Part shown: in pieces, positions 216 to 33,700 of the stretch | How positions within the stretch are numbered: the stretch's first letter is position 1 | How the letters are laid out: every line of letters starts with the position of its first letter | Assembly: GCF_963675165.1 (NCBI RefSeq) | Contig: NC_087385.1 | Span: 5,070,412 to 5,134,411, forward strand | Source of the DNA: Halichondria panicea | Taxonomy: Eukaryota > Porifera > Demospongiae > Suberitida > Halichondriidae | DNA: 64,000 nt | Reading direction: 5' to 3' | Made by a program: the position numbers and the translations under genes | The notes under the pieces: generated by a model | Databases searched by the model: none | What the model was told of the DNA's origin: nothing | Seen by the model: the letters and a program-made list of their open reading frames with translations, nothing else

Positions 216-3200
216 TGGGATATCTGTGTTGTTGGAGATGTTGACAAAGTAAGTTCTTATCTCGTCAATACTGGCAATGATCACAGGGGGCGTCGTGAAG
301 AAGAACAGAAACACAAACAAGACTGGGAGGGGGGGAGGGGTATCATAATGTCATGTGTGTATAATGTCATGTCGTTTACTTACTAATATTGATTAGCAGC
401 CACCTCATCCACCAGATAACATACGGCATTGAGAGGTTGCTCCTGCAAAGAATATGGATACAAATATGAAAACACCGTGCATGGATGCTGATGCCTCGGT
501 GGAAGCTTTTACGACATGAATATAATTACTATTACGGGGCGTAATAGTTAATCCATGACAATAGTTTTTGTTTTAGCTCAAAGCTATTGATAATCTGCAT
601 TACTGCATTGCAACAGTATAGAGCAGTTTCAGCAATAATCTGACATTCACACTACTGTAATACCTTGCTCACACATTGCGCACCGAAGTACAATAGCTCG
701 AATGTTGAAAGATAAAGTTCAGTTTATTTGCAACATACATGCATAAACACTTTATGACATTTATAGATCTACATGTTCCTAATCAATACATCACTTAGTT
801 GCCAATATAGGTGCTATTAGTGGAGTGTATTCATCTGGATTTATTAAACGATCTGGAACGCTGTTCTCATCAATCGAAATCCGGCTTTTCGAGACATTGG
901 TGAAGATGTAAAATCGGCAACATTTGATGAATGAGACGATCAATTTCCATGAAACATAGCACACAAAGTAAGCACAAGGTACACCAATTGAAATGTACAA
1001 TACCACCTTCGATACGTTATCGTACGCACGAATGTAGACATAAATACCCATTGTGAGGCCAAAGTATAACCACAAAAAAGAGTCAAGGGTGTTGTACTTG
1101 TCAATTCGATATGGACGCATAATAGCAACCACTGTAGACATTATGCAAGCTAGAAATTGATAAAAGAGAGAATAGTGTGACCCATTGATCGAAGACACCA
1201 ACACAATTCTCAACAAAAGGTAGAGTCCAGCAAACCAGCGATAGTCTCTTGTACCTGGGGTAGTGCCATTCTTGAAACAACCCTGAACTATGTTAGCCAT
1301 CTCGTGAAGTAAGGTACACCTGATTCTACAACAGAAAAGACATCTCTGGAAAATACGAATCTGATAGAACAAGATAAAAACAGTTGGGATAAAAACCATG
1401 GTAATGAGTACAAAGACAGAAATACCAAAATAAACAGCATAGTAGTTATTTGAGCTCACGCCATAAATACTTGCGTTATAGTACAATCTATATGTTTGGT
1501 TTCCATACTTGTCCAAAACAGGCACTTTCTGTAGCAGATAAAGTGAAATAGAACTGAATTTACAATACGAAAGTAGTATAAAAGTAGCAAAGGCATTCAC
1601 AACAGATCCTTTCAACTCCCAACTCCTACGACACCGTGCAAAACATTTATGAAATGGTTTCCAACAAATCACAAATATCTTAAATCCTTTGTTATGCATT
1701 GTTATGCACAAGTAAACAGCGACAGTGAAAAATATCGGGTAAAGCGCTATAATATATTCCAATGCCAACACAGTGAGCATGCTCACATCAGGGCCAATAC
1801 AAAATGATGGAATTAGAAAGTTAAAAAAGTCCAAACTGAAAATTCCATAGATGCCTGCAACAAAATCTACAACGACATTATAGGAACCATTGGCTAAAGA
1901 AATAGGATTGTTGCTGAAGACAGTGGTGATAATTTGGGCAGCCAATACAAATCCATTCAAGGCAGGAGATGCTACATTAATACGTAAAGCAATGACCAGC
2001 ACACAAAACACTGTCGATGGAATAATAAACCTGACAAAAAAGAGAATCCATCCATAAGGATAAACCAAACACTCTTTACACTCTCTGTAGTACGAGAAGA
2101 CAGCTGGTCCCAGTCCTGGTTGGCAATGACTACACAGTACTCCAGTGCGATTCAGAGGCCCACACATCATCTCATTCAGTTGAGACACATCAGATGGCAC
2201 AGTACAAATCTGCCCAATTAAACTATTTTTGCCAGCGTATGGACATTGGCCAAAGTGTTCGATATTGTTATCACTGTCGTAAGTGAGGCAATGACCAGCC
2301 GTTATCGTAGTTTTGTTTAGTAACTGATAGCAATTAAGTAAATTTTTCTTCTCTATGCCACACTCACACTCATCTGATCCAGCTGTCTTATGGAACCAAC
2401 TGGGACAACTTCTACTTCTCACTGTTGTTAACAGCAGTGTAGCTATAATGAGACTCATAAAAGCAGTCATCATTGTACTTACTCTAACCAAGAGCCCACA
2501 AAACTAATGGGCTAAGTAGCAACTCCAACACAATTAACAAACACTGAATGTAAATGTACTTAAAATTGAAACTTTCATTAGACTGAATAAACAACAATAA
2601 CATGATAATATGCCTTACTAGAGTAGGAATCACATATATACAATGATTTCACTTTCAATCGAAATTGTCTCTTACGCATGCAACATCAGGTGGTGGGTTT
2701 GTGGTGATTAATAGAACAGCAGAAAATTGTTATAATAGGTAATCAATTATAGAGTAATAAAACATTATTATTAAACAGCTAAGGTATTTATCAGATCTTT
2801 GAATGGTTTAGGTTTCCTGATATGTTAGAACCCTGTTATGTGGGTCTTATTATGTTTACAGTATCTAGTATAATATTTAGGTTACACTTTTGATAGATTA
2901 CCATATAGCGGGTAATTTGTTGGTGCAAATTTTCGTACGAACGACCTATTTAAGTACTTTTAATTTTCGTACAGCTCGGGATAGTGACGTTGAATCTATT
3001 GCGGTCGTAGTTTTAATTTTCGTATGATGCTCTTCAGTATGAAATAATTTACGAACATTTCCACCATACAAAAATAACCCGCTATACGGTAGCTTTAAAA
3101 TTTCTTAGTAAGTTTACAAATAATATTCCATTGTGTTGAGATAACACTGCACATTCTATCGTTTTGATTACATCACAATTGCTACCCACAAATCAATGAC

Positions 3201-30700: not shown

Positions 30701-33700
30701 ATTTTCCTCGGCAATGTGTTTTTGTCTATCACAGGAGAACTCATCCATATAACCTATGTTTTCCAGTATATTGATGAATAGTCCAGCACCTCGTGAGCTT
30801 TCTGAATACCCGTAGCAACTCGTAACATTGTTCATCGTCACAGAATTGTTTGTGAACAGTGTAAAGATAAGATCTAAATTAGCCCCAAAATAACCTAAGT
30901 TGTAATTTAGTACACTGTCCTCGATGTGCACTTTAACATTGTAGCAACTGAAAACTATCGTCAACCCACCCCCACCTATGGTTTCGATTACTCTATAATA
31001 TTCTGAGCCGTAGAGAAATTGTGTGTTTTTTATGAGCACATACATCGGCTCAGTGGAATCATCACACGCGCTAAAGAAAATCTTCACGTTTCCACCCTCC
31101 CAGTGCGAGTCGTACATATTGTAAGCAAATAGTGAGTTTGTTATAGAGAGGATGCCTCGAGTGTTGAATGTTCTTAGTCCACTCCCCCCACTGGTGTTCG
31201 TTACTACTAATCCATCGAGGAAAGTGTTGAAGGAGTTCTTGATAATCAAAGCAGCGGCTACTCCATTGTTCCCTTGCTTTTGTATTCTGCATTTGTGGAA
31301 TTCTAGGTTGCTGATTTGCAAATGAACAGTGTCAAAAAATGCAAAGCCAGCGGAAGAATCGGTACAAATTATCCGGCAGACCTTCTGAGTACCCAATAAT
31401 GATAGTCTTTCTTTTCCTTCAACAATCACTTCTTGAGTTAGCGTGTGTGTTCCACTTAGAAAGACAAAGGTGCGATTATTCTCAAAGCTTTTGTTTTCAG
31501 CGTAGTAGCCAAGTGTTTGACAATGAGTGGCATCGTTAGTAACAGGGCAGGAAGAGTTTGTGTCCTCTGTTCTAACATAGTACGTTCCACTGCTACTAGC
31601 TTCATCTATAACTGTACTAGCAGGATGAATACTTGGTATAAATACGTAGATAATAAGCAAGGCCAGAAACATTGTTACAAAAGTACATTAGTAGAACTGT
31701 AGATATGAAATAAAGTTGCTGCCCCTAAATACAAAAAAGGGAATGTTCGTAAAAAAACAAACAAGAACAAGTTATACTGTCTTTCAGTTCCTATATATGC
31801 AATTTAAGATGAATTACATATTCATTGTTCCTCCTCCCCCTGCAGCTTGCTCCAGTTCCACCAGCTGTGTGACGAGACTCAGGCTTGGATTAACGAGAAA
31901 GACCAGGCCCTGTCCTCTGACGATACTGGTAGAGACCTTTCCTCAGTACAGGCGCTACAGAGGAGACATCAGGTGTGGAGGGGGTGTGGTGTGTGTGGGG
32001 AGAGTGTGAAACATTAGTGTATGTTGAACTGTTGCTGTGTGTATAATCTCAGATACGTATATTAGAGGACTATAGCAAGGCTGCAATGAGATAGCCTACA
32101 TGATATATACATGTAGGCTATCTCAATCCTTTTCATATAGCAATAAATGTACATGTACTTATTGATAATAACTGTGACTAATCCGTCCCTCCCCCCACGT
32201 CTACCACCATAGGCTCTGGAGAGAGAGCTTGCCCCAGTGGAGGAGAGACTCAGCAAACTGCGCAGCATGGCTCGCAAGGTGAGTGCATGTTACATTACAT
32301 GTTACAGTACTCACTTAACTACATTACTGTACAGAATTATGCATAGTCTGACATTACAATTGGTCTTGTGATGTTTCACAGGTGGTGTCTAGGAACCCAC
32401 AAGAGGGTCGAGCAGTTGATGGTCGTCAGAACGAGATTGCTACACTCTGGGAAAAACTGAAAGTGAAAGCCAACGAGAGGAAAACAACTCTAGACCATGC
32501 CCACCAACTGCAGACTTTCCTCGCCGACTCTCAGGACTTGGTTAGCACACTGTCAACATACGTACATACCTCCCACACTCGTACAGCACACAGAGTACAC
32601 TCCCTCACACACACACACACACCCTCACGCACACACTCTATACAGTTGAAGTGGTCGTCAGAGACGGTGACTGTGATGTTCTCTGAGGACCTGGCTCGTG
32701 ATGTACAGGGGGCGGAGCTTATGGTCACCCAACATTCAGAGCTCAAGGCTGAGATTGACACAAAGGAGGAGAAGTATGTGATAATTATTATGCACATGTA
32801 ATTGTGAAGTAATCCAATTGAGTTTGTACCCGTTCCACTTCAAGTAACCCACTAGTTAGTATTCAATCATAAGCCTCCTTTGTATATTACATGTACGTAT
32901 ATAGTGTCACTGTTGAGCCGATTCATGTGATGTAATGGCTACTGTTTACTACCTCTAGTCGTTATTGTATTCATCTGCATAGATTTGAGCAGCTGCTCTC
33001 TCTGGGCAAGCGTGTGTCCAGTCGTCCTGGATCGCACACTGATCGGGTGGAGGAGAGGATGAGGGGCGTGACCACTCAACGGGAGGCACTGCGCGAGGCC
33101 TGGGAGCGCAGGAGCAAGGAGCTCAAACAGTGCTCAGAATTACAGGTAAATTGTTTGTGTGTACACAAACATTGTACATGTCATGACCTATCGTATATAG
33201 CGCGAAATTTTCGAGGGGCTTAATTTTCGCTGTTTTCGTGGGTTAGCAATCCTACACGATACAAAGTTTTTTCTGCTATAATGTACAAAGATTAAGGCGT
33301 GACTTCCGGTAAGCAGTTAACCCATGAAATTGATTCAACAAAATACTTTTAGAGGCCATTCCACGAAATTTAAGTGCCTCGAAAATTTCGTGCTATATGG
33401 TATATAATAGGTGTATTGTGATGTTAGTTATTTGCTTCTCTTTAAAAAGTACCAGTAGATCTAACTTGTGCTTCTAGCTGACATTTTTTACTATTTTCCC
33501 AACCCCTCATGTACATTGTACCTTTACTCAACCCTCTAAAATGTGCAGCTGTTCCTAAGAGATGCAGAACAGGTGGACTCCTCCATCAGTGCTCAGGAGG
33601 CATTCCTAGGCAACACGGACCTTGGAACCTCAGTGGACAATGTGGAGGAACTGCTGACTAAGCACAACGAGTTCATGCGCAAGAGCTCTGCCGTTGATGA

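What the first reader, a model, noticed from the sequence alone, without database searches (positions are those of the whole stretch)
791..31672. Two paralogous intronless Cys-rich membrane genes, each nested in an intron of a different long gene
The genes at 791-2491 and 28079-31672 share a motif (NR[ST]G[IV]LC-x2-CQ-x-GL) and the following multi-pass region, including an RFW/RWF-x-G-x-LLL-x-R segment. Each lies wholly inside one intron: one in sense within a TMEM63 gene, one antisense within beta-heavy spectrin. Both host genes are intact across the site. Lack of introns plus dispersed nested positions suggests spread by retrocopying or selection for nested sites. The long form adds a beta-helix ectodomain. 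I know no characterised family with this layout, so this may be an undescribed receptor family. The nesting and motifs are seen; spread mechanism and function are inference.
Basis: partly seen in the sequence, partly recalled or inferred. Interest (0 to 1): 0.75.

Follow-up and report, generated by a model that had tools for sequence, protein, structure and literature searches.

The report
Giant family of intronless surface-receptor genes
Two intron-free membrane-protein genes that each sit inside an intron of another gene turn out to belong to an unnamed family of more than two hundred such genes in this compact animal genome; the nesting looks ordinary, but the family looks like a large, fast-changing set of cell-surface receptors.

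Summary
S560 (791-2473, minus) lies in sense inside a 3,782-bp TMEM63 intron (443-4224). L1197 (28079-31672, minus) lies antisense inside a 4,671-bp beta-heavy-spectrin intron (27175-31845). Splice sites are intact. The proteins are homologous over the whole Cys-rich plus multi-pass region (profile E 2.8e-28), as deep paralogs in two clades.

The interpretation changes. In this 131-Mb genome the two clades hold at least 236 loci (102 short, 134 long) on 17 contigs, mostly clustered; 205 of 236 have no stop inside a match. Intronless structure is thus an old family trait, not a per-copy retrocopy signature. The youngest array copies share flanks (DNA duplication). No target-site duplication or poly(A) beyond shuffles at four loci. 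Of seven members inspected, two are nested, three are not, two are undecided; another spectrin intron holds an unrelated TRAF/MATH-like gene. Nesting looks incidental.

What is unusual is the family: a faster-evolving beta-helix ectodomain on a conserved Cys module and about 9 TM helices, mosaic divergence between copies, and intron-bearing relatives. Best reading: expanded cell-surface recognition receptors. The window proteins match no Pfam or NCBIfam family above cut-off and no PDB chain. Function and taxonomic spread are untested.

The parts
791..2473 (-). S560: intronless gene, 560 aa; signal-like start, short Cys-rich ectodomain, about 9 TM helices (inferred), C-terminal tail
   Evidence: AATAAA 62 nt after the stop; dN/dS 0.39 (first 130 aa) and 0.25 (rest) against its C14 paralog
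2111..2152 (-). shared Cys motif NRTGVLCSHCQPGL of S560
443..4224 (-). TMEM63 intron (3,782 bp, phase 2) that holds S560 in sense
   Evidence: GT donor at 4224, AG acceptor at 443, flanking exon peptides join in frame; TMEM63 domains on both sides
28079..31672 (-). L1197: intronless gene, 1197 aa; beta-helix-type ectodomain, Cys module, about 9 TM helices (inferred)
   Evidence: dN/dS 0.17 (ectodomain) and 0.11 (last 500 aa) against the C13 paralog
29255..29296 (-). shared Cys motif [14 protein letters not shown] of L1197
27175..31845 (+). beta-heavy spectrin intron (4,671 bp) that holds L1197 in antisense
   Evidence: GT donor at 27175, AG acceptor at 31844-31845; spectrin domains

Best explanation
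The two genes are members of two old, separate clades (short and long) of one very large intronless gene family in this animal genome. The proteins are cell-surface receptors. An N-terminal signal peptide sends them to the surface. In the long form a right-handed beta-helix ectodomain reads ligands such as glycans, microbes or other cells. A conserved Cys module couples it to a membrane domain of about 9 helices (N outside, C inside) that passes the signal on, either as a channel or through its cytosolic loops and tail. The family grew largely by tandem DNA duplication, with pseudogene formation and probably exchange of modules between copies, so that ectodomains vary while the membrane part is conserved. 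Nesting in TMEM63 and spectrin introns is incidental: in a compact genome long introns are part of the available landing space. Shown: homology, uninterrupted frames, family size (a floor), clustering, shared flanks of the youngest array copies, substitution patterns, splice sites. Inferred: topology, ligand binding, signalling, module exchange, and that nesting has no function.
For: At least 236 distinct loci from six own-genome searches, 102 short and 134 long, on 17 contigs; 205 of 236 have no stop inside any match; 193 of 236 lie within 50 kb of another. All 46 matches of the L1197 search are free of stops. Four C17 copies (L007-L010) align with each other through about 0.9-1.4 kb upstream and 1.1 kb downstream of the frame at 92.5-96.7% identity. 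In 5 related long copies dN/dS is 0.60-1.08 in 12 of 13 60-codon windows before the Cys module (0.43 in the other), 0.47 in the first Cys-module window and 0.18-0.54 in the 7 windows after it. dS is mosaic along some pairs: L020/L029 0.24 to saturated in the ectodomain but 0.06-0.17 in the membrane part; L008/L020 0.14-0.48 over the first 565 aa, then 1.2 to saturated to about aa 1007, then 0.31-0.68. L1197/L002 (dS about 1.6, dN/dS 0.11-0.17) and S560/L034 are under purifying selection. Profile homology E 2.8e-28. Long and short are each one clade, support 100/99 and 100/100. Hydropathy averaged over 19 long and 9 short rows shows a similar order of strong TM peaks in both, with K/R-rich loops at matching places.
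Against: No ligand, expression or signalling data. The fold of the membrane part is unknown: the single-sequence AlphaFold model of S560 has mean pLDDT 42.6 and is unusable. Ectodomain dN/dS near but not clearly above 1 fits relaxed constraint as well as diversifying selection, and in the youngest C17 pairs it is only 0.42-0.60 and not above the membrane part (0.46-0.60). No formal test of gene conversion was run. For separated copies (S560/L034, L004/L005, L027 and the C6 array) similarity stops at or near the coding ends, so their route of duplication is open. Only 7 of at least 236 neighbourhoods were read for nesting. No AATAAA/ATTAAA within 500 nt after the stop of L1197, L002 and L034. 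Without RNA data a spliced 5' untranslated exon cannot be excluded.
Confidence: 0.6

Rival explanations
1. Retrocopy spread: each dispersed, nested copy is a retrogene of a spliced parent or of another member, inserted at random by LINE machinery.
For: Intron-bearing relatives with the same Cys and membrane modules exist. The interchromosomal pair L021/L027 (dS 0.18-0.27) has coding-limited similarity with no flank signal at all (z 0.2 and 0.6). A reverse-transcriptase ORF lies in the window at 60292-61185.
Against: No target-site duplication or A-tract beyond shuffles at S560, L1197, L002 and L034. The youngest array copies carry their flanks. Tandem copies with dS 0.12-0.31 keep little flank similarity either (z 2.5-8.6), so coding-limited similarity is not diagnostic. 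The family members found are mostly uninterrupted frames, so the trait is inherited.
Confidence: 0.15
2. Nested sites are selected: insertion into introns of widely expressed genes gives these genes a working chromatin setting or regulates the host gene.
For: Both window members are nested, one in sense and one antisense, and under purifying selection.
Against: The nearest relative of L1197 lies between SELENOO and a GMPPB-like gene; L006 lies between SEPSECS and a P450 gene; L018 lies behind the last exon of an ABC transporter gene. An unrelated TRAF/MATH-like gene shares the habit.
Confidence: 0.05
3. The proteins are transporters or channels whose beta-helix part is structural, not ligand-reading receptors.
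For: The membrane module is more conserved than the ectodomain in several groups, and the short clade has only a short ectodomain.
Against: Family size, clusters and variable ectodomains are what recognition repertoires show (established knowledge); no Pfam transporter or channel family matched the two window proteins (E up to 1).
Confidence: 0.2

Closest known systems
Pfam PF24633 (DUF7630)
   Same: Covers the Cys stretch R-x-G-x-LCG-x-C; weak match in 4 of 22 long members at E up to 0.01 (best E 0.0014) and in an intron-bearing relative (E 0.0035)
   Different: Below Pfam's cut-off of 27 bits where the score was shown (14.3 in L1197; 17.9 in L048); does not describe the membrane part; no paper found by name
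Right-handed beta-helix proteins (PF13229, PF02415 Chlamydia PMP repeat)
   Same: Ectodomain of the long clade: PF02415 in 9 of 22 and PF13229 in 3 of 22 members at E up to 0.01
   Different: Fused to a Cys plus multi-pass module
Expanded invertebrate recognition families (sponge SRCR expansion PMC10855680, only listing and abstract start seen; glass-sponge AIG1 tandem block of 50 genes, 38 single-exon, PMC10282587 section 2.2 read)
   Same: Large tandem lineage-specific clusters, many single-exon copies in the AIG1 case
   Different: Different protein domains
Nested genes of sponges (PMC10282587, passages and section 2.2 read)
   Same: Genes inside introns: 2,432 in Aphrocallistes (12.4%), 3,358 with 43,615 genes in Amphimedon
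   Different: Not a family; a genome-wide habit

Membership tests
One gene family (S560 with L1197) | Homology over the Cys module and the whole membrane region | tested here: met
   hhalign E 2.8e-28 over 433 columns; BLASTP E 1e-8
Nested gene | Whole gene between a splice donor and acceptor of one host gene that continues on both sides | tested here: met
Recent retrogene | Target-site duplication and poly(A) remnant | tested here: not met
   4 of 4 loci within the shuffle range; longest A run 4-5
Recent retrogene | Parent gene with introns in the same genome | tested here: inconclusive
   distant intron-bearing relatives exist (E 3.6e-11 to the long profile, 5e-5 to the short one) but no close parent was found
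Pfam DUF7630 | Score at or above the gathering cut-off (27 bits) | tested here: not met
   14.3 bits in L1197, no match in S560; best of 22 long members E 0.0014, score not shown
Right-handed beta-helix superfamily (long clade) | Match to a beta-helix profile | tested here: met
   PF13229 E 1.4e-7 and PF02415 E 3.3e-6 as best of 22; for L1197 alone only E 0.51
Known 7TM, TRP-like or transporter families | Match to a Pfam membrane family in S560 or L1197 | tested here: not met
   S560: no family at E up to 1; L1197: three weak matches, all below cut-off, none to a 7TM, TRP or transporter family; fold not testable because the model is poor
Cell-surface receptor | Surface location and ligand-dependent signalling | not testable with these tools
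   needs experiments

The most novel reading that the evidence does not exclude
An early-branching animal carries a repertoire of more than 230 germline receptors in which beta-helix ectodomains are exchanged among copies over a shared multi-pass membrane domain of a fold not seen in known receptors: an undescribed recognition system (self/non-self or microbe sensing) that is not built on immunoglobulin, LRR, SRCR or classical 7TM receptor scaffolds.
Probability: 0.25. Interest if true: 0.85.

Novelty: new variant of a known kind. Interest (0 to 1): 0.5.

Why it matters
How animals without adaptive immunity tell partners, microbes and kin apart is open, and sponges, the likely host here (inference), live packed with microbes. 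A gene family of this size with variable, apparently exchanged ectodomains and no Pfam match for its membrane part is a direct candidate to test. It also shows that intronless plus nested is not by itself evidence of retrocopying when the whole family is intronless.

Tried and rejected
Retrocopy signature search: nothing beyond shuffles at 4 loci. Nesting as a family rule: rejected by 3 members with readable neighbours; L017 and L034 remain undecided. For L018 I checked that the ABC transporter's last exon and stop lie before it. Viral-contig scan with the family profile: 25 pattern stretches, none a relative. The prokaryote-genome scan could not start. PDB searches: none for L1197, the 22-row long profile, or S560. 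AlphaFold of S560 without an alignment: mean pLDDT 42.6, so no fold search was run. L1197 could not be submitted. Literature: eight searches (three of them listed nothing) gave no paper that I could tie to this family; I saw titles and abstract starts only, except passages of PMC10282587 and PMC4773876 and section 2.2 of PMC10282587. The first pooled counts (215; 241) held double entries and one wrong merge; one search gives 236. It still merges one opposite-strand pair on C11 (5109893 and 5112940; seen), so 236 is a floor. Second pieces of copies split over two matches were left out before counting: seven, three, three. Matches (intron-bearing relatives) are not in the count.
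Full report
S560 is at 791-2473 and L1197 at 28079-31672, both on the minus strand. Both carry the motif NR[ST]G[VI]LC-x2-CQ-x-GL and the RWF/RFW-x-G-x-LLL-x-R stretch. BLASTP between them gives E=1e-8 over 106 aa. Nine short-clade rows (S560 plus eight paralogs) against 19 long-clade membrane regions give probability 99.8 and E 2.8e-28 over 433 columns, so the homology covers the Cys module and the whole membrane part.

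Nesting is exact. On the minus strand the TMEM63 intron runs from GT at 4224 to AG at 443 (3,782 bp), and the exons join in frame. TMEM63 domains lie on both sides, and an exon beyond the window's left edge matches CSC1-like protein 2 at E 3e-11. The spectrin intron runs from GT at 27175 to AG at 31845 (4,671 bp). The host is beta-heavy spectrin: CH domains, many spectrin repeats and a weak PH match; the SH3 tail before the site was recognised by eye.

The genome is 131,455,214 bases in 39 contigs. It is unnamed; I take it for a sponge because it is a compact genome with animal genes, which is inference. Six searches with family members, pooled, give 236 distinct loci: 102 found only with short queries, 134 only with long ones. 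They lie on contigs C1-C17. 205 of 236 have no stop in any match; 193 of 236 lie within 50 kb of another. The largest groups are 25 on C5, 20 on C8, 20 on C10 and 12 on C17. Each search scored only part of its candidates (for example 39 of 505 and 89 of 444), and one opposite-strand pair is merged, so 236 is a floor. Intronless structure is a trait of the family, not of these two copies.

A tree of 31 rows puts long members (19 rows) in one clade, support 100/99, and short members (9 rows) in another, 100/100. Three intron-bearing relatives form a third group (91/80), with a long-branch warning, and one of them has under half of the columns filled. S560 and L1197 are thus deep paralogs. The intron-bearing relatives came to light beside L006. 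Exons in L042 (read by eye) match the long profile at E 3.6e-11 and the short one at 5e-5, against a best of 0.02 in ten shuffled comparisons. More lie on C2, C7, C10 and C11, and two were read in part.

How copies arise: L007-L010 on C17 align through about 0.9-1.4 kb upstream and 1.1 kb downstream of the frame at 92.5-96.7% identity, so they are DNA duplications. Older or separated pairs such as L004/L005, L021/L027 and S560/L034 match only within or close to the coding part. Tandem copies with dS 0.12-0.31 (L016, L019, L023) keep little flank similarity as well (z 2.5-8.6), so this does not show retrocopying; but L021/L027, on two contigs, have no flank signal at all (z 0.2 and 0.6), and retrocopying is not excluded there. 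At S560, L1197, L002 and L034 no direct repeat or A-tract exceeds shuffles or stands out.

Is nesting special? L002, the nearest relative of L1197 found (67% identity; dS about 1.6), lies between SELENOO and a GMPPB-like gene. L006 lies between SEPSECS and a P450 gene. L018 lies behind the last exon and stop of an ABC transporter gene. Neighbours were found by eye and confirmed in part by Pfam: SelO, NTP_transferase, SepSecS, p450, ABC_tran (2 of the 9 stretches given had no match). L017 and L034 could not be decided. So 2 of 7 inspected members are nested, 3 are not, 2 are open. A TRAF/MATH-like gene (MATH_2 E 2e-5, below cut-off) lies antisense in another spectrin intron. In sponges 2,432 nested genes (12.4%) are counted in Aphrocallistes and 3,358 with 43,615 genes in Amphimedon; the paper stresses that such counts depend on the annotation method (PMC10282587, passages read). 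Nesting needs no special cause, though the nested fraction of this family was not measured.

What the proteins are: the long clade has beta-helix matches (Chlam_PMP in 9 of 22, Beta_helix in 3 of 22, E up to 0.01). The 19 aligned long rows share 31 invariant columns, 10 of them cysteines, through the Cys module and membrane region. Averaged hydropathy gives a similar order of strong peaks in both clades, with K/R-rich loops at matching places; I read this as about 9 helices, N outside, C inside (inference; the weak peaks leave the number open). In five related long copies dN/dS is 0.60-1.08 in 12 of 13 ectodomain windows and 0.18-0.54 in the membrane windows. The youngest C17 pairs do not show this contrast (ectodomain 0.42-0.60, membrane part 0.46-0.60). 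dS is mosaic in some pairs: L020/L029 share a young membrane part under an older ectodomain, L008/L020 roughly the reverse, which suggests exchange between copies; no formal test was run. L1197/L002 and S560/L034 are under purifying selection. I read these as the marks of an expanded surface-recognition family; ligand and signal are inference. The AlphaFold model of S560 alone was too poor to use.

Known families: for the two window proteins no Pfam or NCBIfam family above cut-off; no PDB match for either protein or the long profile; no viral relative found with the one pattern tried. Eukaryote proteomes could not be searched here, so spread outside this genome is untested. From recall only, similar Cys plus multi-pass modules occur in protist proteins; this was not tested.

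Noticed in passing
window 39635-41023 (-): A TRAF/MATH-like gene, in pieces in more than one frame, lies antisense inside another beta-heavy-spectrin intron (between exons near 35.8 kb and 41.06 kb, read by eye): a third nested gene, of an unrelated family.
   Followed up: partly
L042 2250-3930 (-), C2:531000-535999: Intron-bearing relative of the membrane module beside L006; its last exon is split between two frames. A 120-bp stretch from the 5' end of the L006 locus is repeated exactly just upstream of it.
   Followed up: partly
window 27438-27814: A pair of inverted 14-nt ends (AGTGGCGGATCCAG / CTGCATCCGCCACT, 93% complementary) 349 nt apart in the spectrin intron, MITE-like.
   Followed up: no
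L033 7697-7999 (C13): A partial, nearly identical second copy of L002 begins about 5 kb downstream of L002, starting in the middle of the gene (by eye).
   Followed up: no
window 57656-63700 (-): Retroelement remains: frames at 57656-58150, 58758-59441 and 63143-63700 that look BEL/Pao-like from recall (no Pfam hit for 57656-58150, the others not searched), and a reverse transcriptase at 60292-61185 (RVT_1 E 2.6e-32).
   Followed up: no
window 8862-11228 (+): A 788-aa single open frame, rich in Ser/Thr with internal repeats, without a Pfam match.
   Followed up: no
C6:4470828-4513282 and C6:3203704: Long-clade members with much larger single open frames (up to 1,876 aa in the C6 array and 2,847 aa at C6:3203704), so the ectodomain probably varies widely in length.
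   Followed up: no
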